A stretch of 64,000 bases of DNA from Geminicoccus roseus DSM 18922 (GTDB lineage: Bacteria; Pseudomonadota; Alphaproteobacteria; Geminicoccales; Geminicoccaceae): assembly GCF_000427665.1 (NCBI RefSeq), contig NZ_KE386572.1, positions 496,001 to 560,000 of the forward strand. Reading direction: 5' to 3'. Below, piece by piece: positions 34,282 to 46,917 of this stretch. Position 1 is the stretch's first letter. Each line of letters opens with the position of its first letter. A program made the position numbers and the translations under genes. Under the pieces are notes generated by a model, which searched no databases, was not told the origin of the DNA, and saw nothing but the letters and a program-made list of their open reading frames with translations.

Positions 34282-34974
34282 ATGCATCGCCATCATGACG
34301 GGTCCTCGCAGCACCTGATCTCCCGCGAGTCGACCCACGCCCTTGCCCAGGGCCTGGGCTGGTTCAGCATCGGGCTGGGGCTGGCGCAACTGCTGGCCCC
34401 GCGCAGGGTCGGCGAGTTCTTAGGCACGGAGGAGCACACGAACGTGATCCAGGCCTGTGGCGCGCGCGAGGTCGCCACCGGCATTGGCATCCTCACCGCC
34501 CAGGATCCGACTCCCTGGTTGTGGGGGCGTGTCGCCGGCGACGCGCTCGACCTGGCGACGCTGGTGCCGGCGGTCCGCGACAATCCCAAGAAGGGCAATG
34601 TCCTGTTCTCGATCGCGGCGGTCGCGGGAATTGCCGCACTGGACCTGATCTGCGTCCAGGAGCTGAACGCGCAGCGGCGGGAACAGCAGTGGCAGCGACG
34701 GCGCCGCTGGATTCCGGACTACAGCAGCCGCAGCGGATTTCCCAAAGGGGTCGAGCAGACCCGCGGAGCTGCCCGCGACTTCGAGGTGCCGCGCGACATG
34801 CGCATCCCCGAAGCCCTGCGCCCCTGGAAGACCGACCGCGGGACCGCCGCGGCTGCGTCACCTAGGTCACCGGGCTCCTTGTCCGCGACCGATACGTCCA
34901 CCCCGGCGCCCAAGCCGCAGATCTCCAGCACCACAGCGTCGCGGGTTGCCGCTCAGACTCAGACCCGGACATAG
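34282..34974 (+). CDS. Membrane protein resembling the N-terminal part of cyclase/dehydrase-type proteins
   Basis: A 230-residue protein. Residues about 20-125 hold three to four hydrophobic segments with the motif GLGWFSIGLGLAQLLAPRRVGEFLG and ACGAREVATGIGIL, which usually precede an SRPBCC (cyclase/dehydrase) domain in longer proteins. Here that domain is absent; instead a basic, proline-rich tail follows (RRRRWIPDYSSRSGFPKG and beyond). GAGGAG lies nine bases before the ATG. Its 3' end overlaps the convergent TIM-barrel gene by 16 bp. Confidence 0.72.
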   Translation: MHRHHDGSSQHLISRESTHALAQGLGWFSIGLGLAQLLAPRRVGEFLGTEEHTNVIQACGAREVATGIGILTAQDPTPWLWGRVAGDALDLATLVPAVRDNPKKGNVLFSIAAVAGIAALDLICVQELNAQRREQQWQRRRRWIPDYSSRSGFPKGVEQTRGAARDFEVPRDMRIPEALRPWKTDRGTAAAASPRSPGSLSATDTSTPAPKPQISSTTASRVAAQTQTRT

Positions 34975-35867
34975 GGGCGCCAGAAGTCCGCCGACTGCTT
35001 CAGCGCCTGGATCACGTTGCTGTCGGTCGGCTCGCGCTCCCGGAACGAGAACTCGAACACCAATTCGTTGTCCTGGCCTCCACCGCGCCGGATCGCTTCC
35101 AGGAGCGGCTCCGGGGTGATCCGGCCGGTGGCGTTGTTCTCCGGCGTGAACGGCCGGTGCCCGCCCTTGTCCATCGAGCTCTGCTTGATGTGGATCACCG
35201 GGCTGTCCGCGGCCAGCGCCTCGGCGATGGCATAGGGGTCGTAGTCGCGGGGATCGGGCGAGGTCACGTCGCCATGGTCGATGTCGGCGCAGATCTTGAA
35301 GGGCAGCGGCATGTCCTGCTCGACCAGCGCCTGGATCCGCCGCGTTTCCGGCAGGGTGTGGCCGAACTCGCGGCGGATCGACATGTGCTCCCACATCAGG
35401 AAGGACAGGCCTCTGTCCTTCGCGCGCTGCGCCAGGTCGCGCCAGTCGTCGATCACCCGCTTCAGCACCGCCTCGCGCCGTGCGTCCTCGGCATCGTCGG
35501 CATAGGTCATGATCGCCAGCAGGGTGCCGGTGCCGCGGGCGCCGAGATCGGCGGAGATGTCGATCCAGGTGGCCAGCCAGTTCTTCCACCATGCGCGCAC
35601 ATCCGGATCCGGATGGCCCAGATGGTTCACCCGCGTGTAGGCGCCGGAGAAGGTCGTGCTGATGGTGGCGCCGTTGGCTTGCAGCGCGCTGTTGTAGCGC
35701 TTGACGAAGCTGGCCTGCAGCGGTGCCGGCCAGGAAGGGTCCAGGAATTCCGGCGTGAGCTGGATGCGGCTCATGCCGATCTCCTGGGCGATCGTACCGA
35801 CCAGGGCCTCCGGCTCGACGATCCGGTTGATCGCGAAGTTCGTGTTCAGCCCGAGCGTGTAGTCCAT
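34959..35867 (-). CDS. Xylose-isomerase-like TIM-barrel epimerase/isomerase
   Basis: A 302-residue sugar-phosphate isomerase/epimerase-type barrel (AP endonuclease 2 fold). Likely metal ligands sit on strand ends: Glu in FLMWEHMSI, Asp/His in CADIDHGDVTS, His in VIHIKQSS and Glu in LVFEFSFRE. Enzymes of this fold epimerise or isomerise ketoses and their phosphates. It is divergent from the polyol transport and catabolism operon (214 bp between) and probably supplies an epimerase step to it. AGGGAG lies upstream of the ATG. In erythritol and threitol pathways a comparable isomerase acts on tetrulose phosphates. Confidence 0.82.
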   Translation of the reverse strand: MDYTLGLNTNFAINRIVEPEALVGTIAQEIGMSRIQLTPEFLDPSWPAPLQASFVKRYNSALQANGATISTTFSGAYTRVNHLGHPDPDVRAWWKNWLATWIDISADLGARGTGTLLAIMTYADDAEDARREAVLKRVIDDWRDLAQRAKDRGLSFLMWEHMSIRREFGHTLPETRRIQALVEQDMPLPFKICADIDHGDVTSPDPRDYDPYAIAEALAADSPVIHIKQSSMDKGGHRPFTPENNATGRITPEPLLEAIRRGGGQDNELVFEFSFREREPTDSNVIQALKQSADFWRPYVRV

Positions 35868-35987
35868 CGTCCCTCTCCCTCATCGCCCCGCTGAGGCGCC
35901 GGCCGGCCACGTCACGCGCGACTCGATGGACCATCGCCGCCGGTCGATCAAGCACCCGTGCGCGGCCCGTCTCCGATCGATCCCCGC

Positions 35988-36019
35988 TTGACAGTATGCG
36001 ATAGCGAAGACCCTATGCG
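35988..36019 (+). promoter_or_regulatory. Candidate promoter/operator of the polyol operon
   Basis: A perfect TTGACA (35988-35993) lies 89 bp before the first permease gene and is followed by a pair of direct TATGCG repeats (35995-36000 and 36014-36019, 19 bp apart). CCCTAT at a 17-bp spacing is a poor minus-10. The two repeats could be a regulator site on one face of the helix. Evidence is limited to these matches in the divergent region 35868-36081. Confidence 0.35.
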
Positions 36020-36081
36020 CGAAAGTGAGCATCGACCGCGACCAGGGCGGAAAAACGTTTTTAGGGTAGGCTTTCAGCACG

Positions 36082-37002
36082 ATGAGCAGCAGCTCGATTG
36101 CAGCCGGCAGCGCTGCGCACAGGCGCTCGTGGCTGCCGCGGTGGTTCACGGCGGAATCGGCCCTGGGATGGCTGATGCCGGTAGTCGTCCTGCTGGTCGT
36201 GTTCGGCGTCTACCCGCTCCTCTACAGCGTCTGGCTGAGCCTGCAGGAGCGCTCCCGCGTCACCCGCCAGTTCGAGTTCGTCGGGCTGAAGCAATGGGAG
36301 ATCGCTCTTACCGATCCCCGCACCTGGGACAGCTTCCAGGTCACCCTCACCTATACCCTGGTCTGCCTGTTCTTCCAGGTCGTGCTCGGCATGGCGATCG
36401 CCATGCTGCTGGACACCGAGCGGCGCGGCTACGGCCTGCTGCGCTCGCTGATGACCCTGCCGCTGGTGGTGCCGCCCGCGGTGACCGGCCTGATGTTCCT
36501 GCTGATGGAGGACGCCCAGTTCGGGGTGCTCTCCTACTACCTCAAGCAGCTTGGCATCATCGATCCGCTGAACCCGATCCTGGCCGGCAACGACACCGCG
36601 CTGATCGGCGTCATGCTGGCCGACATCTGGCAGTGGACGCCGTTCATGGTGCTGATCTTCCTGGCCGGGCTGCGGGCCTTGCCCAAGGAGCCCTATGAGG
36701 CGGCGGCCATCGACGGCGCCTCGGCGTTCCAGGCATTCCGGATGATCACCCTGCCCCTTCTGACCCGGGTGATCGCGGTGGCGGTGCTGATCCGCTCGAT
36801 CGACCTGTTCCGGGTCTATGACTATGTCTACGTGATGACGAGCGGCGGTCCCGGCACCCAGACCGAGACCTTGAGCTTCTATGCCGGCCGCCTGTTCACC
36901 CTCGCCAACTTCCCCTACGCGGCGGCCCTAGCGCTGATCGTGCTGATCTCGCTGAACGTGATCGCCTCGATCTTCATCAAGCTGTTCAAGGTGCGGTTCT
37001 GA
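36082..37002 (+). CDS. Sugar/polyol ABC transporter permease (MalF type)
   Basis: A 306-residue inner-membrane permease with six predicted helices. The coupling motif is EAAAIDGASAFQAFRMITLPLL (the EAA loop), which contacts the ATPase. It belongs to the carbohydrate-uptake group 1 permeases. Its stop overlaps the start of the second permease (TGATG), so the two subunits are co-translated. First gene of the operon; upstream lies the divergent epimerase gene. Confidence 0.92.
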   Translation: MSSSSIAAGSAAHRRSWLPRWFTAESALGWLMPVVVLLVVFGVYPLLYSVWLSLQERSRVTRQFEFVGLKQWEIALTDPRTWDSFQVTLTYTLVCLFFQVVLGMAIAMLLDTERRGYGLLRSLMTLPLVVPPAVTGLMFLLMEDAQFGVLSYYLKQLGIIDPLNPILAGNDTALIGVMLADIWQWTPFMVLIFLAGLRALPKEPYEAAAIDGASAFQAFRMITLPLLTRVIAVAVLIRSIDLFRVYDYVYVMTSGGPGTQTETLSFYAGRLFTLANFPYAAALALIVLISLNVIASIFIKLFKVRF

Positions 37003-37892
37003 TGCGTACCCATCCCGCCCTCGGCATCCTGCGCGACGTCTGCGCGTGGCTGGTCGTGCTGCTGTTCGTGTTCCCGATCTTCTGGTGGGTCCTGGCCTCG
37101 TTCAAACCCTACACGGCGATCTTCAACACGACCCCGGTCTACTGGGGCTTCGAGCCGACCCTGGACAACTACCGGGTGACGCTGGGCGGCGTGTCGCGCC
37201 TGTCGCTGGTGACCGACGAGGGTGCGGCCGGCACGGTCGCGGGCGGCGGCAGCTCCTACTATTCGATCCCGTCCATCATCGACAGCGTGGTGGTGGCGCT
37301 GGGCTCGACCGCGATCAGCATCGTCCTGGCAACGCTGTGCGCCTACGGCCTGTCGCGTTTCAGGTTCCGGGGCCAGCAGCCCTTCGTGTTCTGGATCCTG
37401 TCGCAGCGCATGATGCCGCCGATCGCGATCGCCATCCCGATCTTCTTCATGTTCCGCGATCTGGGCCTGCGCGACACCCATCTGGGCCTGATCCTGGCCC
37501 ACACGCTGATCAACCTGCCGATCGCCGTCCTGCTGATGAAGAGCTTTCTGGACGACATCCCGGCGGATCTCGACCAGCAGGCGATGATCGACGGGGCCAC
37601 GCGCTGGCAGACCTTCTGGCTGGTGGTGATGCCGCTGGTGAAGGGCGGCCTCGCGGCCACCGCGGTTCTGTGCTTCATCTTCTCCTGGACCGAGTTCCTG
37701 CTGAGCCTGCAGCTCACCTCGCAGATCCGCACGATCCCGGTGAAGATCTCGACCTTCGTCACGTCGACCGGCACCGAGTGGGGCTTCATCACGGCGCTGG
37801 GCAGCGCCGCGCTGATACCGAGTTTCATCTTCATCGTCCTCGTCCAGAAGCATCTGGTACGCGGCCTGACCCTCGGCTCACTCAAGGACTGA
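37002..37892 (+). CDS. Sugar/polyol ABC transporter permease (MalG type)
   Basis: A 296-residue permease with six predicted helices and the EAA-type loop QQAMIDGATRWQTFWLVVMPLV near residue 190; the first Glu-Ala is replaced by Gln-Gln, a variation often seen in this subunit. It pairs with the permease encoded just upstream. No ATPase gene follows in this operon, so a shared MsmX/UgpC-type ATPase encoded elsewhere would be needed. Confidence 0.92.
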   Translation: MRTHPALGILRDVCAWLVVLLFVFPIFWWVLASFKPYTAIFNTTPVYWGFEPTLDNYRVTLGGVSRLSLVTDEGAAGTVAGGGSSYYSIPSIIDSVVVALGSTAISIVLATLCAYGLSRFRFRGQQPFVFWILSQRMMPPIAIAIPIFFMFRDLGLRDTHLGLILAHTLINLPIAVLLMKSFLDDIPADLDQQAMIDGATRWQTFWLVVMPLVKGGLAATAVLCFIFSWTEFLLSLQLTSQIRTIPVKISTFVTSTGTEWGFITALGSAALIPSFIFIVLVQKHLVRGLTLGSLKD

Positions 37893-37934
37893 GCGGCCGT
37901 TCTCCGTTCGATCAATCAAAAGGGAGGCAGAAGA

Positions 37935-39461
37935 ATGAGTTTCAGGGAACACGACCGCAAGACGTTCATCGCCGACACCTGCGGCGACTACGCGTCGCGG
38001 CGGATCAGCAAGCGCGAGTTCATCCGCAAGCTCGGCATCGCAGGCGTCGGCCTGTCCGGCTTCGGTGCTGCGATGCTGGGCGGCGGCCGCCCGTTCCGCG
38101 GCCTGGACTTCGGCAACCCGGCCTTCGCGCAGGCCGGGCCCGACGAGGCCATGATGCAGTGGCTGTCCGAGGTGGGTAAGCCGTTCGCCGGCACCACGAT
38201 CCGCTACACCTCCGAGGCGACCCCGCCGACGATCGTCGCCAACCAGCTCGCCAAGGAAGAGTTCACCAAGGCGACCGGCATCAACGTCGAGATCGAGATC
38301 GTTCCGCTGGAGCAGGTGCTGCAGAAGGCGACCCTCGACATCCAGGGCCAGATCGGCACCTACGACCTCTACTATCTCGACCAGTCCTGGATGGCGACCT
38401 TCTCGCCGGACATGGAAGATCCGCGCGAGTACTACGATTCGCATCCCGACATCGCGATGCCGGACTTCGACTGGGCCGACTTCAGCCAGCCGCTGCTCGA
38501 CGGCATCTCGATGTATGACGGCAAGCTGGTCTCGATTCCGTTCGACATCCCGATCTTCATCCTGATGTACCGTCGTGACCTCTACGAGAAGCACGGCCTC
38601 AAGGTCCCGACCGACCTGAACGAGTACATGGCCAACGTGAAGGCCATCCAGGAAGCCGAGAGCAAGAACGGCATCTACGGCACCACCGGCCAGCTCCGCT
38701 CCGGGCACTACAGCCTGGAATGCGACTGGACCGCCTGGCTGTGGGGCAATGGCGGCTCGATCTACGACAAGGCCGGCATGTTCTCCGGCGGCGACGAGCA
38801 GGGCATCAAGGGCCTCGAGTATCTCATGGAGATCTCGAAGAACTGCCCGCCCGGCGCCTTGACCTGGACCTGGGACGGCGAGGGTCAGTCGGTGGCGCAG
38901 GGCCTGGCCGGCCAGGTGATCACCTGGGGCGAGTATTTCCCGAGCTTCGACGGCGCCAACAGCAAGGTCGTGGGCCTGATGGAGGCGGCGCCGCCGCCAA
39001 AAGCGATCTCGCTGCGCAAGCCCGAGGATTGCGGCTTCAACGAGATCCCGAACGTCGGCCACCAGGGCGGCTCGGGCCTGGGCCTGTCGAAGTACTCGCA
39101 GAACCAGGAAGCGGCCTTCCTCTTCATGCAGTGGGCCACCTCCAAGGACGTGGTCGGCCGCGGCTCGGTTCTGGGTGGCGGCGCCTCGCCGGTCCGCCTC
39201 TCGGCCTTCACCGACCCGCGCACCCTGGCGGCCGCCAAGGTCGGCCCCGGCACCACGCGGCACTTCCCGGCGGTCGAGAAGACCATCAACACCATGATGG
39301 GCTCCGAGCCGGACTTCCCGGCCTGGGCGGAACTGTCGAACAACACCATCCCGGTGGAACTCGGCAAGTACCTGACCGGCCAGTTCAAGACCCCGCAGGA
39401 ATGCATGGACGCGATCAAGCCGGTGGCCGACGAGATGGCGGCGCCGTTCCGCAAGGCCTGA
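37935..39461 (+). CDS. Extracellular solute-binding protein of the polyol ABC importer
   Basis: A 508-residue carbohydrate-binding protein (SBP family 1). The leader has SRRISKREFIRKLG followed by a hydrophobic Gly/Ala stretch, so Tat export is likely; cleavage is expected near AFAQA. The mature part shows ATPPTIVANQLAKEEFTKATGINVEI and DLYYLDQSWMATF, typical of family 1 two-lobe receptors for sugars and polyols. GGGAGG sits nine bases before the ATG. A stem-loop follows the stop codon, which would allow more receptor than enzyme to be made. Confidence 0.9.
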   Translation: MSFREHDRKTFIADTCGDYASRRISKREFIRKLGIAGVGLSGFGAAMLGGGRPFRGLDFGNPAFAQAGPDEAMMQWLSEVGKPFAGTTIRYTSEATPPTIVANQLAKEEFTKATGINVEIEIVPLEQVLQKATLDIQGQIGTYDLYYLDQSWMATFSPDMEDPREYYDSHPDIAMPDFDWADFSQPLLDGISMYDGKLVSIPFDIPIFILMYRRDLYEKHGLKVPTDLNEYMANVKAIQEAESKNGIYGTTGQLRSGHYSLECDWTAWLWGNGGSIYDKAGMFSGGDEQGIKGLEYLMEISKNCPPGALTWTWDGEGQSVAQGLAGQVITWGEYFPSFDGANSKVVGLMEAAPPPKAISLRKPEDCGFNEIPNVGHQGGSGLGLSKYSQNQEAAFLFMQWATSKDVVGRGSVLGGGASPVRLSAFTDPRTLAAAKVGPGTTRHFPAVEKTINTMMGSEPDFPAWAELSNNTIPVELGKYLTGQFKTPQECMDAIKPVADEMAAPFRKA

Positions 39462-39488
39462 CGCCCGTCGGCAGGCCTGATCGAAGAG

Positions 39489-39517
39489 TGGCGGGGCAGC
39501 GATGCCCCGCCAATTTT
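39489..39517 (+). terminator. Intra-operon stem-loop after the binding-protein gene
   Basis: A perfect 10-bp stem (TGGCGGGGCA with TGCCCCGCCA) closed by a GCGA tetraloop of the stable GNRA class and followed by ATTTTC. It lies 27 bases after the binding-protein stop and before the kinase gene. It could act as a partial terminator or protect the upstream mRNA, as found for other binding-protein operons. Confidence 0.7.
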
Positions 39518-39545
39518 CTGCAAGAGAACGAAGATCCCTGGCACC

Positions 39546-41074
<1,529 letters not shown>

Positions 41075-41078
<4 letters not shown>

Positions 41079-42370
41079 CCGGAGCCGACCCGCTCATCCA
41101 GGAGTTCGTCCACGGCCGCTATGTCGACCGTACCACCGGCAAGACCGTTCCCTGCAGCCTGCAGAAGGTGGTGACCACCGAGAGCACCGCCGGCCAGGAA
41201 GCCGAGCTTCTGTCCGGCCTGGGTCTGGGCGAGCGGCTGGGCATCGTCGCCGACGAGAACACCTGGGAGGTGGCCGGAAGGCGCATCCAGGCGGCCCTGC
41301 CCAACTCGGAAGCGATCCTCCTGGAGCACCCCAAGGCCGACGAGAAGAACGCTGCCATTCTGAAGGACAAGTCCCGCCATGTGGACGGACTGGTCGCCGT
41401 GGGCTCCGGCACGATCAACGACCTGTGCAAGCACGTGACGTTTGCCGATGGGCGCGGCTGCGCGGTGTTCGGCACCGCCCCGTCCATGAACGGCTACGTC
41501 ACCTCGACCGCCTCGATCACCCGGGATGGCTACAAGCTTTCCCTGAAGAGCCACGCGCCCCGCGGCGTGTTCTATGACCTGTCGGTCTTAGCGGCGGCAC
41601 CGGTGCGGATGATTCGTGCGGGCTTCGGCGACGCGGTCTGCCGCAGTTCCGCCCAGGTGGACTGGCTGCTGTCGCACCGCCTGCTCGGCACCGTCTACGA
41701 GCAGGGGCCGTTCGACATCCAGGCCCCCTACGAACCGATCCTGCTCGAGCGTGCCGAGGGCCTGGTCAAGGGCGATCTGGTCGCGATGCGGGCGCTCACC
41801 GACATGCTGACGCTGGGCGGCTTCGGCGTGCTGTTCACCCACACCAGCCATTCCGGCTCGATGGCCGAGCATTCCATCAGCCACTACATCGACATGTTCG
41901 CGGATCCGCATCCCGGGACCCTGCATGGCGAGCAGGTCGGCGTCGCGACGCTTACCGCCAGCCGGCTCCAGGCGCGGATCCTGGCGCTCGAGACCCTGCC
42001 GCCCCTGCAGGTACGCCAGATCGACGACGAGAAAATTCGTCGCCTGCACGGAAAATCCGGCGACGAGATGGTCAAGGTCGCCCACGCCAAGGCGCTCGAT
42101 GCCGAACAGACCCGCGCCATGAACGAACGCCTCGAGCGCAGCTGGCCGGAGCTGCGTTCGGAACTGCTGGCAATCATGTTGCCATTGGAAAAACTGGTTG
42201 CCGCCTATGCCGCATCCGGCACCGCGACCACGGCGGCAGGCATCGGGATCGCCCCTTGCTTCTACCGCCGGGCCGTGCTCAACGCCCGCGACGTCCGGGA
42301 CCGCTGGTCGTTCCTGGACCTGGCCGGCGACCTCGACTTCTTGGAAGGGTTCGCCGAACACGAGGGATGA
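41075..42370 (+). CDS. Glycerol-1-phosphate-dehydrogenase-type metal-dependent dehydrogenase
   Basis: A 431-residue enzyme of the iron/zinc alcohol dehydrogenase superfamily, glycerol-1-phosphate dehydrogenase branch (AraM/EgsA-like). The nucleotide motif is GSGTINDLCKH; metal ligands are Asp186 (GFGDAV), His266 (SMAEHSISHY) and His284 (LHGEQV). The conserved SMDGY loop reads SMNGY (Asn139), hinting at altered substrate contact. In this operon it most likely oxidises a polyol phosphate made by the kinase rather than making archaeal-type lipid. GTG start with AAAGGA eight bases upstream. Confidence 0.82.
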
Positions 42371-42371
42371 C

Positions 42372-43412
42372 ATGGCGACGGTACTGATCCTGGGCGCGGG
42401 CGTGATGGGCAGCGCGTTCACGCTGCCACTGGCCGATGCCGGCCACGACGTCCGCCTGGTCGGCACGCCCATCGACGCCCAGACCATCGACGCGCTTCGT
42501 CAGAATGGGGTCCACCCGCGGCTGAACGCGCCCCTGCCCCGGAACGTCCGGACCTTCCATCACCACGAGATCGGTCAGGCGGTCTCCGACGAGATCGAGC
42601 TGATCGTGATCGGGGTGAGCACGGCAGGCGTCACCTGGGCCACCGACCTGCTGGCGCCGGTCCTGCCGGGCCCGCGGCCGGTGATGATGCTCACCAAGGG
42701 CCTGGACACGGACGGGAAGAACATCCGCCCGCTGACCGACCCGGTGGCGGAAGCCCTGAAATGCCCGACCGGCGGCGTCGGCGGCCCCTGCATTGCCGGC
42801 GAGCTCGCGGTCCGGCGCGACACCTCGGTGGTGTTCGCCCATCCGGAGGAAGCGACGCTGCGCCGCCTGCTGGATCTGGTGGCAGCACCCTACTACCACG
42901 CGCGGCCGTCCCGGGACGTGGTCGGCACCGAGGTGTGCGCCGCGCTGAAGAACTTCTACGCACTCGGCATCGGCGCTGCGGTCGGGATGCTCGACCGCCA
43001 GGGCGGCGCGGAAAACGGCGCGCAGATGCACAACATCGCCGCCGGCCTGTTCGCGCAGGCGCTCCTGGAGCTCAGGCAGATCAACGCCCTGGTCGGCGGC
43101 AGCGACAGTTCGGTGCACGGCCTGGCGGGTACGGGCGACCTCTACGTCACCGTGCAGGGCGGCCGGAACAGCCGGATGGGCCGTCTGCTCGGCGCCGGCT
43201 GGCGCTATTCGAAGGCCAAGGCCGAGAAGATGAAGGACGAGACGGTGGAGGGCGCCGAGCTGGCGCTGTCCGCCGGGCCGACCCTGGAGAACATGATGCG
43301 CGAGGGGGCGCTTGCGAAGCAGCAAATGCCCCTCACATGTGCGATCATCGACGCGATCAGTCGCGACCACGAGTTCAGTGTCGACTGGCAGCGTTTCCAC
43401 TACGCGCACTGA
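42372..43412 (+). CDS. GpsA-type NAD(P)-dependent polyol-phosphate dehydrogenase
   Basis: A 346-residue dehydrogenase related to glycerol-3-phosphate dehydrogenase. The Rossmann motif is ILGAGVMGSAF (residues 6-16), the phosphate/lysine region has TKGLDTDG (Lys109), and the catalytic Lys lies in ALKNFYALG (Lys193). It starts one base after the preceding stop. Being the stereochemical counterpart of the upstream glycerol-1-phosphate-type enzyme, it may handle the mirror-image polyol phosphate. It is unlikely to be the housekeeping GpsA because of its operon context. Confidence 0.83.
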   Translation: MATVLILGAGVMGSAFTLPLADAGHDVRLVGTPIDAQTIDALRQNGVHPRLNAPLPRNVRTFHHHEIGQAVSDEIELIVIGVSTAGVTWATDLLAPVLPGPRPVMMLTKGLDTDGKNIRPLTDPVAEALKCPTGGVGGPCIAGELAVRRDTSVVFAHPEEATLRRLLDLVAAPYYHARPSRDVVGTEVCAALKNFYALGIGAAVGMLDRQGGAENGAQMHNIAAGLFAQALLELRQINALVGGSDSSVHGLAGTGDLYVTVQGGRNSRMGRLLGAGWRYSKAKAEKMKDETVEGAELALSAGPTLENMMREGALAKQQMPLTCAIIDAISRDHEFSVDWQRFHYAH

Positions 43413-43423
43413 AGGAGAGCAGC

Positions 43424-43882
43424 GTGAGCAAGGTCGTGATCGGAGCGGACAATCTGGGCCTGCCGCTGAAGGACATTCTGGTCGAGCACCTGAAGTCCAA
43501 GGGTCACGAGGTGGTCGACATCGGCACCAACACGAGCGATCCGGTCGACTATCCCGGCGTCGGCCGTCGGCTGGCGGAGAAGGTCGCCGCCGGCGAGTTC
43601 AGCCGCGGCATCCTGGTCTGCGGCACCGGCGCCGGCATGGCGATCGTGGCCAACAAGGTGCCGGGCGTGCGCGCTGTCTGCGTGACCGATCCCTATACCG
43701 CCGAGCGCGCGATCGCTTCCAACAACGCCCAGGTCATCACCATGGGCGCCCAGATCACCGGCCCTTCCGTCGCGAAGATGCTGGCCGACATCTATCTCTC
43801 CAACGAGTTCCAGGCGGAGCGCTCGGGCAAGAAGGTCGCGCAGATCGACCAGATCGACGCGGAGATGCGCAAGGCCGGCTGA
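43424..43882 (+). CDS. RpiB-family sugar-phosphate isomerase, altered active site
   Basis: A 152-residue RpiB/LacAB-family isomerase. The phosphate/thiol motif CGTGAGMAI (Cys66, Thr68) is intact, so proton transfer is probably retained. Two His of ribose-5-phosphate isomerase B are missing: the early D-H-A-G motif is DNLG (Asn10), and HNDAN is SNNAQ (Ser99). His99 helps to open the sugar ring in RpiB, so its loss fits an acyclic substrate such as a tetrulose phosphate. GTG start with AAGGAG seven bases upstream. Last gene before a strong terminator. Confidence 0.88.
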   Translation: MSKVVIGADNLGLPLKDILVEHLKSKGHEVVDIGTNTSDPVDYPGVGRRLAEKVAAGEFSRGILVCGTGAGMAIVANKVPGVRAVCVTDPYTAERAIASNNAQVITMGAQITGPSVAKMLADIYLSNEFQAERSGKKVAQIDQIDAEMRKAG

Positions 43883-44273: not shown

Positions 44274-44594
44274 GTGCCTTACAAGATCGATCCGGCGGTC
44301 GACCGGCAGTATATCGAAGAGATGCGCAAAAAGCCGATCGGCGCCCACAGCCCGGGGCTGCAGCGGGTCCTCAACACGTTGCGCACCGACAAGAGCGGCC
44401 GGCAGGTGATCCTGGTGGTGCTCAAGCCGTTCGAGAAATGGGTCCTGGGCGAGATGCCGGCGGATCGCCGCGATCCGATCACGATCGAGGATGGCCCGGT
44501 CTTCACGAGCCGTGAGGAAGCGGAGTGGGAGATCTTCCGCCGCCGCTGGCTCCTGCACACGGGCGAGAACATCAACCTGCCCTTCAAGGACTAG
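44274..44594 (+). CDS. N,N-dimethylformamidase-type small (alpha) subunit
   Basis: A 106-residue helical protein that matches the small subunit of N,N-dimethylformamidase in position and general pattern (basic helices, C terminus ...RRWLLHTGENINLPFKD). It presumably caps the large subunit. The known small subunit is about 130 residues, so this one is shorter. The GTG start is supported by CAAGGAGG eight bases upstream; the frame stays open for 118 more codons upstream without coding character. It is 61 bp ahead of the large-subunit gene. Confidence 0.72.
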   Translation: MPYKIDPAVDRQYIEEMRKKPIGAHSPGLQRVLNTLRTDKSGRQVILVVLKPFEKWVLGEMPADRRDPITIEDGPVFTSREEAEWEIFRRRWLLHTGENINLPFKD

Positions 44595-44610
44595 CTGCCG
44601 CCTCGGCGAT

Positions 44611-44625
44611 TGCACGAACGAACCC
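44611..44625. repeat. Isolated copy of the 107-bp array core 15-mer
   Basis: TGCACGAACGAACCC occurs here exactly as at 22260-22274 and 22689-22703 in the tandem array. It lies in the 61-bp gap between the two amidohydrolase subunit genes, followed by AAGAAGCC. This suggests a dispersed repeat family in the genome. Confidence 0.75.
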
Positions 44626-44655
44626 AAGAAGCCTTTGCCAGGTAAGAGACAGCGC

Positions 44656-46917
44656 ATGCTCAAGATCGTCGGCTATCCGGACCGCTACAGCGTCGCCCCA
44701 GGCGAGACCATCTCCTTCCAGGTCTCGGTCGAGGAGGGCGATCGCTTCGATGCCCGGATCGTCCGGGTCCTCAACGGCGACTGCAACCCGGAAGGCCCCG
44801 GCCTGAAGCTGCCCCATGTGCCGACTTCGATCGACGGCAGCTACCCGGCCAGGCGGCAGCGCATCGATCCCGGCTCCTACATGACCGTGCCGGCCATGCC
44901 CCCGTTGGCGGATCAGGCCTTCACCTTCTTCGCCACGATCTGGCCCACCCTCACCGATCGCGGCGACCAGACGCTGGCCGCACAGTGGGACGAAGAGAGG
45001 CAGGCCGGGTTCCGGATCGAACTGGTGGACGGCGGCAGGCTGGCCTTCGTCAGTGGCGATGGCAGCGGCACGGCACGGGTCGCCACCGGCAAGCCGATGC
45101 TGGTCCGGCAATGGTACCGCATCGCCGTCGGCTACGACCCGGCCAGCGGCCGCGTGACCCTCATCCAGGAACCGCTGCGCCACTATCCGCTGGTCCACGA
45201 CGCTGACCGGGTCGACGGGACGGCCGAGACCCGGCCGACGCCCCTGGCAGTTCCCTTCCTGCTGGCAGGTTCGCCCGAGGCGGACGGCTTCATCGGTCGC
45301 CACTATGACGGCAAGATCGACAGCCCGGCTCTCGTCTCCGGCATCCATGGCCTGGACCGCTACCTGCCGCTGCTGGGTTCGGGCGTGCCGTTCGTCCACG
45401 ACACCGGGCTGATCGCGCGCTGGGACTTCACCAGGGAGATGCGCACCACCCGCACCGTCGATCTCGGGCCATCGCGGCTGGACGGCGAACTGGTCCACCT
45501 GCCGACCCGGGCCATGAAGGGCTGGAACTGGACGGGCGAGCAGCACGACTGGACCCGCAAACCCGAGCATTACGGTGCGATCCACTTCCACCGCGACGAC
45601 ATCTACGACGCCGGCTGGGAGACCTCCGTCGCCTTCACCCTGCCGGACGACTTCAAGAGCGGCGCCTACGCCCTGCATGTCCATTGCGGCGACAGCGACG
45701 AGCAGGCCACCCGCGAGGACTATCTGGCGTTCTTCGTGCGTCCGCCGCGCGGCAAGAACCGCGGCCAGCGCCCCAAGGTGGCCTTCCTGGCGCCGACCTG
45801 CGCCTACATCGCCTATGCCAACCACGGCGAGCACATCACCGCGCGTGGGGCGGAAGCGCTGATGAACCGGCTGCTGCCGTTCGGCCACTCCGACATGTAC
45901 ATGTACTACCATCCGGAACTCGGCGGGTCGCTCTACGACAGCCATGCCGACGGTTCCGGCGTCTGCTATTCCAGCCGCCTGCGCCCGGTGCTGAACTTCA
46001 CCAGCCGCTACCATTCCTGGCTGGGCGGCCATGGCTCGGCGCTGTACCAGTACAATGCCGACACCCACCTGTTCTACTGGCTGGACCAGAAGGGCGTCGA
46101 CTACGACATCGTGACCGACGAGGACCTGCACCATGACGGCTACGAGCTGATCAAGGACTATCAGGTCATTCTCACCGGCACCCACCCGGAATATCATTCC
46201 ACGCAGGCCTGGGACGCGATGAAGGCCTGGGTCGATCGCGGCGGGCGGCTGATGTACATGGGCGGCAACGGCTGGTATTGGCGCGTCGGCTTCCATGACA
46301 CGCTAGACGGCGTGATCGAGCTGCGCCGCGCCGAGGACGGCATCCGCCCCTGGATCGCCGAGCCCGGCGAGTATTTCCAGTCGTTCAACGGCGAGTATGG
46401 CGGCCTGTGGCGCCGGATCGGCCGGGCGCCCAACGTGATGGCCGGCATCGGCTTCGTTGCCCAGGGCTTCGACGTCAGCTCCTACTACCGGCGGGCACCC
46501 GACGCGGACAATCCGCGCGCTTCCTTCATCTTCAAGGACGTGCCGGACGAGATCATCGGCGACTTCGGCCTGATCGGCGGCGGTGCTGCCGGCATCGAGC
46601 TGGACTGCATCAACACCGACCTCGGCTCGCCGCCGAACATGCTGCGGCTGGCTTCCTCCGAGGGCCACAGCTCGATGATGATGCTGGTCAACGAGGAGTT
46701 CGGCGTGGTGCCGCCAGCACTGGGCGGCGACCAGAACGACCAGGTGCGCGCGGACATGGCGTTCGGCGAGACCGCCGCGGGCGGCGCCATCTTTGCCACG
46801 GGCTCGATCGCCTGGTGCGGGGCGCTCCTGCCGAACGGTTGCGACAACAACGTGTCGAAGATCACCTGGAACGTTCTGGAACGCTTCATGGATCCAAGGC
46901 CGTTCACCACAGACTGA
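44656..46917 (+). CDS. N,N-dimethylformamidase-type large (beta) subunit
   Basis: A 753-residue amidohydrolase subunit, close to the 760 residues known for dimethylformamidase, a mononuclear-iron enzyme that splits dimethylformamide into dimethylamine and formate. A ConA/LamG-like beta domain (about 85-225) is followed by an alpha/beta domain with the putative metal site: Tyr384 or Tyr387 (APTCAYIAYAN), Tyr427 (SLYDSHADGSGV) and His510/Glu512 (GTHPEYHS), which parallel the ligands and active His of the Paracoccus enzyme. The family is broad, so the real amide may differ. ATG at 44656 is 61 bp after the small subunit. Confidence 0.82.
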   Translation: MLKIVGYPDRYSVAPGETISFQVSVEEGDRFDARIVRVLNGDCNPEGPGLKLPHVPTSIDGSYPARRQRIDPGSYMTVPAMPPLADQAFTFFATIWPTLTDRGDQTLAAQWDEERQAGFRIELVDGGRLAFVSGDGSGTARVATGKPMLVRQWYRIAVGYDPASGRVTLIQEPLRHYPLVHDADRVDGTAETRPTPLAVPFLLAGSPEADGFIGRHYDGKIDSPALVSGIHGLDRYLPLLGSGVPFVHDTGLIARWDFTREMRTTRTVDLGPSRLDGELVHLPTRAMKGWNWTGEQHDWTRKPEHYGAIHFHRDDIYDAGWETSVAFTLPDDFKSGAYALHVHCGDSDEQATREDYLAFFVRPPRGKNRGQRPKVAFLAPTCAYIAYANHGEHITARGAEALMNRLLPFGHSDMYMYYHPELGGSLYDSHADGSGVCYSSRLRPVLNFTSRYHSWLGGHGSALYQYNADTHLFYWLDQKGVDYDIVTDEDLHHDGYELIKDYQVILTGTHPEYHSTQAWDAMKAWVDRGGRLMYMGGNGWYWRVGFHDTLDGVIELRRAEDGIRPWIAEPGEYFQSFNGEYGGLWRRIGRAPNVMAGIGFVAQGFDVSSYYRRAPDADNPRASFIFKDVPDEIIGDFGLIGGGAAGIELDCINTDLGSPPNMLRLASSEGHSSMMMLVNEEFGVVPPALGGDQNDQVRADMAFGETAAGGAIFATGSIAWCGALLPNGCDNNVSKITWNVLERFMDPRPFTTD

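What the first reader, a model, noticed from the sequence alone, without database searches (positions are those of the whole stretch)
34959..43882. Candidate undescribed polyol-phosphate (possibly tetritol) catabolic operon
The sequence shows an importer, an FGGY kinase, two polyol-phosphate dehydrogenases from unrelated folds, an RpiB-type isomerase and a divergent xylose-isomerase-like barrel. Known erythritol and threitol routes use kinase, phosphate dehydrogenase, a barrel-type isomerase/epimerase and an RpiB homologue to reach erythrose 4-phosphate. The family set here is alike, but the dehydrogenases (glycerol-1-phosphate type and GpsA type) are not the ones I know from those routes. Inference: a variant route for erythritol, threitol or another short polyol.
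Basis: partly seen in the sequence, partly recalled or inferred. Interest (0 to 1): 0.75.

Follow-up and report, generated by a model that had tools for sequence, protein, structure and literature searches.

The report
Variant four-carbon sugar-alcohol catabolism operon
A bacterium of the genus Geminicoccus carries a gene cluster that probably imports a sugar alcohol with four carbons and turns it into an ordinary sugar phosphate with enzymes other than those of the two known routes, but nobody has yet tested it in the laboratory.

Summary
The eight genes are real and lie exactly at 34959-43882, in a Geminicoccus genome (Alphaproteobacteria). The barrel is not an unknown: it is EryC-like (50-51% to EryC of erythritol loci), the genome's only match. 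A second locus about 420 kb away holds EryA-, EryB-, EryD- and EryH-like genes but no EryC and no RpiB.

The RpiB is not an ordinary ribose-5-phosphate isomerase. It is related to EryI and has Ser for the ring-opening His99 (Ser in 16 of 16 EryI, cluster and Rubrobacter types; His in 18 of 18 ordinary ones). That fits a tetrose 4-phosphate, which cannot close a ring.

Kinase-G1PDH-GpsA occurs in 8 of 31 genomes of the order; all 8 have a Ser-type RpiB (5 inside the cluster), against 2 of 23 others. Three of the 8, and one single-contig genome outside the order, lack EryC and EryH.

Best reading: a kinase-first tetritol route; two dehydrogenases of opposite handedness make erythrulose 4-phosphate and RpiB makes erythrose 4-phosphate. 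C4 is fairly well supported; substrate and oxidised carbon are inferred. Related clusters elsewhere carry aldolases and may serve other polyols.

The parts
34959..35867 (-). EryC-like D-erythrulose-1-phosphate 3-epimerase (xylose-isomerase-like TIM barrel)
   Evidence: PF01261; 317 bits to 4k3z; 50-51% to EryC of three ery-type loci, E/D/H/E positions kept (their role as metal ligands is recalled); only match in the genome at 1e-20
35868..36081 (.). divergent intergenic region; TTGACA at 35988-35993 conserved in three Geminicoccus; an AAACGTTT near-palindrome is conserved in part
   Evidence: alignment of three genomes; promoter and operator reading is by eye
36082..37002 (+). ABC importer permease (UgpA/MalF type)
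   Evidence: PF00528; NCBIfam hits below cut-off
37002..37892 (+). ABC importer permease (UgpE/MalG type)
   Evidence: PF00528; NCBIfam hits below cut-off
37935..39461 (+). solute-binding protein, MalE-like; start looks like a twin-arginine signal (by eye)
   Evidence: PF01547/PF13416; best solved relative 5iai, 115 bits
39546..41078 (+). FGGY polyol kinase, nearer to kinases that sit beside G1PDH in Proteobacteria than to EryA (by identity; no tree made)
   Evidence: PF00370/PF02782; 42-44% to G1PDH-linked kinases of five other lineages and 50-61% within the order, 26-29% to EryA types, but also only 29-30% to the Rubrobacter kinases beside G1PDH
41075..42370 (+). G1PDH/AraM-type polyol-phosphate dehydrogenase
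   Evidence: PF13685; below NCBIfam G1PDH cut-off, 136 against 413 bits
42372..43412 (+). GpsA-type polyol-phosphate dehydrogenase, on another branch than housekeeping GpsA
   Evidence: PF01210/PF07479; below NCBIfam cut-offs; tree
43424..43882 (+). tetrose-phosphate-type RpiB isomerase (Ser99, codon 43718-43720; Ser134; Lys137)
   Evidence: PF02502; tree and residues

Best explanation
The operon imports and breaks down a four-carbon polyol (erythritol and/or threitol). Shown: gene set, conservation, EryC identity, tetrose-type RpiB, co-occurrence. Inferred: binding protein and permeases bring the tetritol in (with an ATPase from elsewhere); the FGGY kinase phosphorylates one end; the G1PDH-type and GpsA-type enzymes, whose families act on opposite-handed glycerol phosphates, oxidise tetritol phosphates of opposite configuration at the reacting carbon to D-erythrulose 4-phosphate; the Ser99-type RpiB isomerises that to D-erythrose 4-phosphate for the pentose phosphate pathway. 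EryC most likely serves the separate erythritol locus (EryA-, EryB-, EryH-like) that lacks it, and the RpiB may serve both. If the dehydrogenases instead oxidise next to the phosphate, the products are erythrulose 1-phosphates, and EryC plus the EryH-like TPI would complete the route. The stated confidence is for the C4 pathway as such; within it the direct route has about 0.35 and the long route about 0.25.
For: RpiB: EryI (8), cluster type (6) and Rubrobacter (2) split from 18 ordinary RpiB at 100/99; Ser at E. coli His99 in 16/16 against His in 18/18, Ser at His134 in 16/16 against His in 18/18. Checked later: an actinobacterial RpiB near FGGY and G1PDH (L082) has Ser at both, and three more ordinary ones have His at both. 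His99 opens the furanose ring (PMC3755991, passages); a fungal RpiB with the same His-to-Ser change was suspected of using shorter substrates (PMC3212906, passages). EryC 50-51% to EryC of three ery-type loci. Second locus: TPI 53-54% to the TPI of ery-type loci, kinase 51-54% to EryA types, dehydrogenase 62-65% to EryB types, SorC-type regulator, importer with two ATPases, no EryC or RpiB hit (genome-wide). In the order, kinase-G1PDH-GpsA in 8/31 genomes, all 8 with a Ser-type RpiB, 5 of them inside the cluster; 2/23 of the rest, of which 4 had no RpiB match (Fisher 5.7e-6, not corrected for kinship). EryC and the EryH-like TPI occur in the same 7 genomes. Kinase, G1PDH, GpsA and Ser-type RpiB without EryC/EryH in G314, G291, G305 and in single-contig G030. 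In a Rhodospirillaceae MAG an FGGY-G1PDH-importer set adjoins an EryA/EryB locus.
Against: No biochemical or growth data. Rhizobium/Agrobacterium clusters with like importer, kinase and G1PDH carry a bifunctional aldolase/dehydrogenase; Acidiphilium, G304 and the Rhodospirillaceae MAG have class II aldolases beside kinase and G1PDH and no RpiB was hit there, so the upper half may handle other polyols. G030 also has, by eye, aldolases and further kinases near its GpsA-RpiB pair. The kinase scores best, below cut-off, to xylulokinase. EryB, a GlpD relative, oxidises next to the phosphate, which by analogy speaks against the direct route. In three of the eight genomes the Ser-type RpiB lies outside the cluster: beside the EryH-like TPI in G299, on a short contig in G316, with no polyol gene hit nearby in G305. 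The Ser residues may only reflect common descent. The RpiB misses the NCBIfam D-erythrulose-4-phosphate isomerase cut-off (152.9 against 240) but passes a general RpiB subfamily model (170 against 135).
Confidence: 0.6

Rival explanations
1. Long route (a sub-case of the C4 reading): the two dehydrogenases oxidise the carbon next to the phosphate, giving D- and L-erythrulose 1-phosphate; EryC interconverts them, the EryH-like TPI of the second locus and RpiB finish. It is then a variant top half on the known Brucella bottom half.
For: EryB precedent (PMC5992420 passages; PMC10733421 passages); EryC sits divergently beside the operon in Geminicoccus; EryH-like TPI in the genome.
Against: Kinase, G1PDH, GpsA and a Ser-type RpiB occur without EryC and without an EryH-like TPI in G314 (82% complete), G291 (93%), G305 (98%) and single-contig G030.
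Confidence: 0.25
2. The operon serves a pentitol (ribitol, arabitol) or hexitol; kinase and dehydrogenases give a ketose phosphate such as ribulose 5-phosphate or psicose 6-phosphate for RpiB, and EryC is there only for the separate erythritol locus.
For: Kinase nearest to xylulokinase below cut-off; aldolase-bearing relatives; nearest solved binding protein 5iai, recalled as a ribitol complex (title not seen); Mpt transporters take erythritol, ribitol and L-arabitol together (PMC10433430 passages).
Against: RpiB has lost the ring-opening His and groups with EryI; ribulose 5-phosphate would need no dedicated isomerase, and an ordinary RpiB exists in the genome.
Confidence: 0.15
3. The genes are a loose neighbourhood: kinase-G1PDH-GpsA for one polyol, EryC and RpiB merely relocated parts of the erythritol route, with no common pathway.
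For: EryC sits in an ery-type locus in G315, G316 and G300 and was seen next to this operon only in Geminicoccus; G316 and G299 have kinase-G1PDH-GpsA without RpiB in the cluster.
Against: GpsA-RpiB adjacency recurs in G315, G314, G291, G030 and as a broken remnant in Agrobacterium; Rubrobacter plasmids hold RpiB with the same families.
Confidence: 0.1

Closest known systems
Brucella/Rhizobium erythritol route (EryA, EryB, EryC, EryH, EryI)
   Same: EryC present; RpiB groups with EryI; kinase first; end product predicted as erythrose 4-phosphate
   Different: kinase not EryA; EryB replaced by G1PDH- and GpsA-type enzymes; no EryH, EryD or ATPase among the eight genes; a separate EryA/EryB/EryD/EryH-like locus exists in the same genome
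Mycobacterium smegmatis threitol/erythritol routes (from passages of PMC12780249 and PMC10733421; original paper not seen)
   Same: tetritol to erythrose 4-phosphate; DerI as last step (its RpiB fold is recalled)
   Different: there erythrulose is made first and then phosphorylated; here the enzymes imply kinase first
Rhizobium/Agrobacterium/Acidiphilium plasmid clusters with FGGY, SorC, G1PDH, HAD-IIB and GlpD (first two also importer, aldolase/dehydrogenase and GpsA)
   Same: importer 50-55% (not in Acidiphilium, which has another), kinase 42-44%, G1PDH 46-48%, GpsA 39-40% in the first two
   Different: aldolase, HAD and GlpD instead of EryC and a working RpiB; Agrobacterium has only a broken RpiB remnant
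Rubrobacter plasmid clusters (L051, L070)
   Same: FGGY, G1PDH, GpsA and a Ser-type RpiB together
   Different: another phylum; about 29-39% identity for kinase, G1PDH and GpsA; extra GlpD, DhaK, HAD and other genes; no importer annotated in the stretches seen

Membership tests
Brucella-type erythritol pathway | EryA erythritol kinase | tested here: not met
   window kinase 26-29% to EryA of two ery loci; an EryA-like kinase (51-54%) is in the second locus
Brucella-type erythritol pathway | EryB FAD dehydrogenase | tested here: not met
   none among the eight genes; 62-65% relative in the second locus
Brucella-type erythritol pathway | EryC epimerase | tested here: met
   50-51% over the whole length, 317 bits to 4k3z; activity not tested
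Brucella-type erythritol pathway | EryH, a second TPI | tested here: not met
   absent from the cluster; the genome's second TPI lies in the other locus
Brucella-type erythritol pathway | EryI, RpiB-type isomerase | tested here: inconclusive
   groups with EryI and has the same Ser99/Ser134, but Lys137 not Asn, and scores below the NF051858 cut-off
Ordinary RpiB | ring-opening His99 | tested here: not met
   Ser99; it does pass the general RpiB subfamily model NF004051
Glycerol-1-phosphate dehydrogenase (NCBIfam NF002022) | curated score cut-off | tested here: not met
   136.4 against 413 bits
Housekeeping GpsA (NCBIfam PRK00094 models) | curated score cut-off and place in the tree | tested here: not met
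   best 137 against 257 bits; five rows that I labelled housekeeping split off at 100/100, but three rows of unknown role fall with the cluster type
ABC sugar importer (CUT1 type) | binding protein, two permeases, ATPase | tested here: inconclusive
   first three present; ATPase not among the eight genes; the rest of the genome was not searched for a partner
Mycobacterium threitol pathway | tetritol dehydrogenase before an erythrulose kinase | not tested
   no reference sequences were on hand

The most novel reading that the evidence does not exclude
A third natural tetritol pathway, three steps long: a kinase makes a tetritol 4-phosphate; a relative of the archaeal-lipid glycerol-1-phosphate dehydrogenase and a relative of the bacterial-lipid GpsA, families of opposite handedness, act as a stereochemical pair (erythritol and D-threitol forms) and both give D-erythrulose 4-phosphate; a Ser99 RpiB gives erythrose 4-phosphate. 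No epimerase or second TPI is needed.
Probability: 0.35. Interest if true: 0.65.

Novelty: new variant of a known kind. Interest (0 to 1): 0.5.

Why it matters
[quoted passage not shown] A shorter, kinase-first route with dehydrogenases of families known for NAD(P) would give new enzymes for making and using rare tetroses, and would explain a gene set, seen from Geminicoccus to Rubrobacter, whose annotation mostly names glycerol-phosphate and ribose enzymes. The Ser99/Ser134 signature offers a simple way to tell likely tetrose-phosphate isomerases from ordinary RpiB in genome annotation.

Tried and rejected
A structure model of the binding protein (alignment of 5 rows) had mean pLDDT 36 and was discarded; no fold search was made. 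A shared operator between the window's intergenic region and that of the second locus was sought with 14-mers and up to 2 mismatches; none was found. Search of 31 order genomes with the rhizobial bifunctional aldolase/dehydrogenase: nearly full-length relatives at 32-37% in G290, G301, G312 and G289 and a partial one in G299; the hits listed for the window's own genome match only the dehydrogenase half (the list was cut). Whether the cell has another, housekeeping GpsA was not tested: the cut-off of 1e-15 can hide it. No kinase or G1PDH tree was made. Literature: ten searches of the held open library, judged from their listings, showed no paper that pairs G1PDH with tetritols (0 papers with all three terms). 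Subscription papers were not read: Barbier 2014 is not held and Huang 2015 was not looked up. Dropped rows: 6 of the 34 RpiB matches (all 35-38% identical) were left out of the tree; two of them, the only RpiB of G308 and G310, were checked later and have His99; four had no fetched locus and lie in genomes whose other RpiB was classed. In one search two proteins could not be cut out.
Full report
Observation. All eight genes exist at 34959-43882. permA to RpiB run on the + strand with overlaps or gaps of at most 84 bases; the barrel is divergent across a 214-base gap. No ATPase, regulator, aldolase or TPI is among them. GpsA starts at 42372 and RpiB at 43424.

Where it comes from. The best named relative is Geminicoccus harenae (L077), with the whole set in the same order at 84-95% identity; G. 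flavidas (L081) has the G1PDH-GpsA-RpiB end at a contig edge. The window's genome (G000) is therefore a Geminicoccus (inference; family Geminicoccaceae).

The barrel is EryC-like. It matches PDB 4k3z, whose molecule name is D-erythrulose 4-phosphate dehydrogenase, at 317 bits over 300 residues (that it is the Brucella protein is recalled), and EryC of three ery-type loci at 50-51%. EryC is described as D-erythrulose-1-phosphate 3-epimerase (PMC10733421, passages). It is the only match in the genome. In an even sample of the class, 2 of 289 genomes had a match at 1e-20: the window's own and one at 31%; in the order 7 of 31 at 1e-40. In G315 and G316 (59 and 63% identical) EryC lies with an EryH-like TPI, a SorC-type regulator (by eye) and an Mpt-type importer, in G316 also EryA; in G300 with importer, EryA, EryB, TPI and RpiB; in G301 with TPI and RpiB; in G299 on a short contig without such hits. 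In a tree of 12 rows the three Geminicoccus EryC form one group (100/99), its exact neighbours less sure. EryC was seen beside this operon only in Geminicoccus.

A split erythritol locus. The genome has two TPI genes. One is 53-54% identical to the TPI of ery-type loci and 45% to the other. It sits head to head with a SorC-type regulator (35% to one from the rhizobial cluster), followed by a binding protein, two permeases, two ATPases, an EryA-like kinase (51-54%), a hydroxyacid dehydrogenase, an EryB-like dehydrogenase (62-65%) and a second FGGY kinase. No EryC or RpiB was hit there; genome-wide there is one EryC match and two RpiB, that of the window and one near 2.54 Mb. Geddes et al. 2013 (PMC3599248, abstract and two sections) describe the Mpt-type arrangement in Sinorhizobium. 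If this locus uses erythritol, its EryC, and probably its EryI step, must come from the window operon.

The RpiB is of the tetrose type. In a tree of 34 RpiB proteins, cluster type (6), EryI (8) and Rubrobacter (2) split from 18 ordinary ones at 100/99; cluster type and EryI are each a 100/99 group, and EryI with Rubrobacter is weakly joined (93/64). E. coli His99 is Ser in 16 of 16 and His in 18 of 18 ordinary ones; His134 is Ser in 16 of 16 against His in 18 of 18; Arg137 is Asn in EryI (8 of 8), Lys in the cluster type (6 of 6) and Rubrobacter (2 of 2), Arg in 18 of 18; the active-site Cys (66 in the window protein) is kept in all 34. Four more were checked later: L082, an actinobacterial RpiB in a stretch with FGGY and G1PDH, has Ser at both places; those of G308 and G310 and the second one of G030 have His at both. 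His99 opens the furanose ring (PMC3755991, passages). A 4-carbon sugar with a 4-phosphate cannot close a furanose ring (chemistry). Authors of a fungal RpiB structure with the same His-to-Ser change suspected shorter substrates (PMC3212906, passages), and deletion of a Yarrowia RpiB-type gene that resembles EryI impairs erythritol use (PMC5992420, passages). The shared residues may be common ancestry rather than convergence; either reading points to C4.

Conservation of the core. In 31 genomes of the order, the cluster-type GpsA was found in 8 (G000, G292, G316, G315, G314, G299, G291 at 56-100%; G305 at 38%), next to G1PDH in 8 of 8 and to the kinase in 7 (in G292 the contig ends). Seven further matches at 31-36% look like housekeeping GpsA. 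All 8 genomes have a Ser-type RpiB: five inside the cluster (G000, G292, G315, G314, G291), three elsewhere and of EryI type (G316, G299, G305). Of the 23 other genomes 2 have one (G300, G301, both with EryC), 17 have only the His type and 4 had no RpiB match (second copies of G300 and G301 not aligned). Fisher p is 5.7e-6, without correction for kinship; the 8 fall in 5 genera. EryC and the EryH-like TPI occur together in the same 7 genomes.

The core without EryC and EryH. G314 (82% complete), G291 (93%) and G305 (98%) have kinase, G1PDH, GpsA and a Ser-type RpiB but neither an EryC match at 1e-40 nor an EryH-like TPI. So does G030, a single contig of 1,410,127 bases without N, searched whole in pieces: one TPI, no EryC hit, one His-type RpiB and a Ser-type RpiB (66% identical) directly after GpsA, about 6 kb from its kinase and G1PDH. 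From its size I take it to be HIMB59 (recalled). These genomes are the main ground for the direct route.

Stereochemistry (established chemistry and inference). GpsA acts on sn-glycerol 3-phosphate, G1PDH on its mirror image. In tetritol 4-phosphates of the D series, C2 has the GpsA-like configuration in D-threitol and the G1PDH-like one in D-erythritol; oxidation at C2 gives D-erythrulose 4-phosphate from both. This would explain two unrelated dehydrogenases in one operon. If oxidation is at C3, next to the phosphate, as with EryB, the products are the two erythrulose 1-phosphates, and EryC and EryH are needed. The sequence cannot decide which.

Relatives with another lower half. On Rhizobium and Agrobacterium plasmids a like importer, kinase and G1PDH come with HAD, GlpD, an aldolase/dehydrogenase and GpsA; Agrobacterium salinitolerans has a broken RpiB remnant beside GpsA that also reads SNNAQ. 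Acidiphilium has kinase-SorC-G1PDH-HAD-GlpD with another importer and a class II aldolase; G304 and G301 of the order have similar sets. Rubrobacter plasmids hold FGGY, G1PDH, GpsA, GlpD and RpiB. In a Rhodospirillaceae MAG (L089, apparently the same genome as G028) an FGGY-G1PDH-importer set with a class II aldolase and no RpiB hit adjoins the Mpt-EryA-EryB locus. The upper half may thus serve more than one polyol.

What remains open: substrate, carbon oxidised, ATPase, regulator, and whether EryC takes part. Novelty: in the listings of my searches of the held open library I saw no description of this set; many papers of the field are not in that library.

Noticed in passing
L050 7785-8169 (Agrobacterium salinitolerans plasmid): Unannotated, broken RpiB resembling EryI next to GpsA, with stop codons and matches in two frames.
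   Followed up: partly
L052 12325-18318 (R. etli p42a): The same kind of polyol cluster looks degraded: importer pieces and GpsA appear only as fragments.
   Followed up: no
L148 1304-4991 (G292): A second FGGY-G1PDH-SorC set in the same genus with no GpsA or RpiB hit, perhaps for another polyol.
   Followed up: no
G000:C5 about 962.8-975.6 kb (L057, L065): Erythritol-type locus with Mpt-like importer, two FGGY kinases, EryB- and EryH-like genes but no EryC or RpiB.
   Followed up: yes
window 35988-36063: TTGACA box conserved in three Geminicoccus upstream of permA, and an AAACGTTT near-palindrome conserved in part; candidate promoter and operator by eye.
   Followed up: partly
window 44491-46917: 808-residue frame with a DMFA2_C (dimethylformamidase-like) domain and a lectin-like part downstream of the operon on the same strand; role unknown.
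   Followed up: no
L060 9105-10124 and L061 9103-10065: GpsA relatives of the cluster branch in two 1.2 Mb genomes with no window-type polyol gene hit nearby; by eye the one in L060 lies beside NADH dehydrogenase genes.
   Followed up: partly
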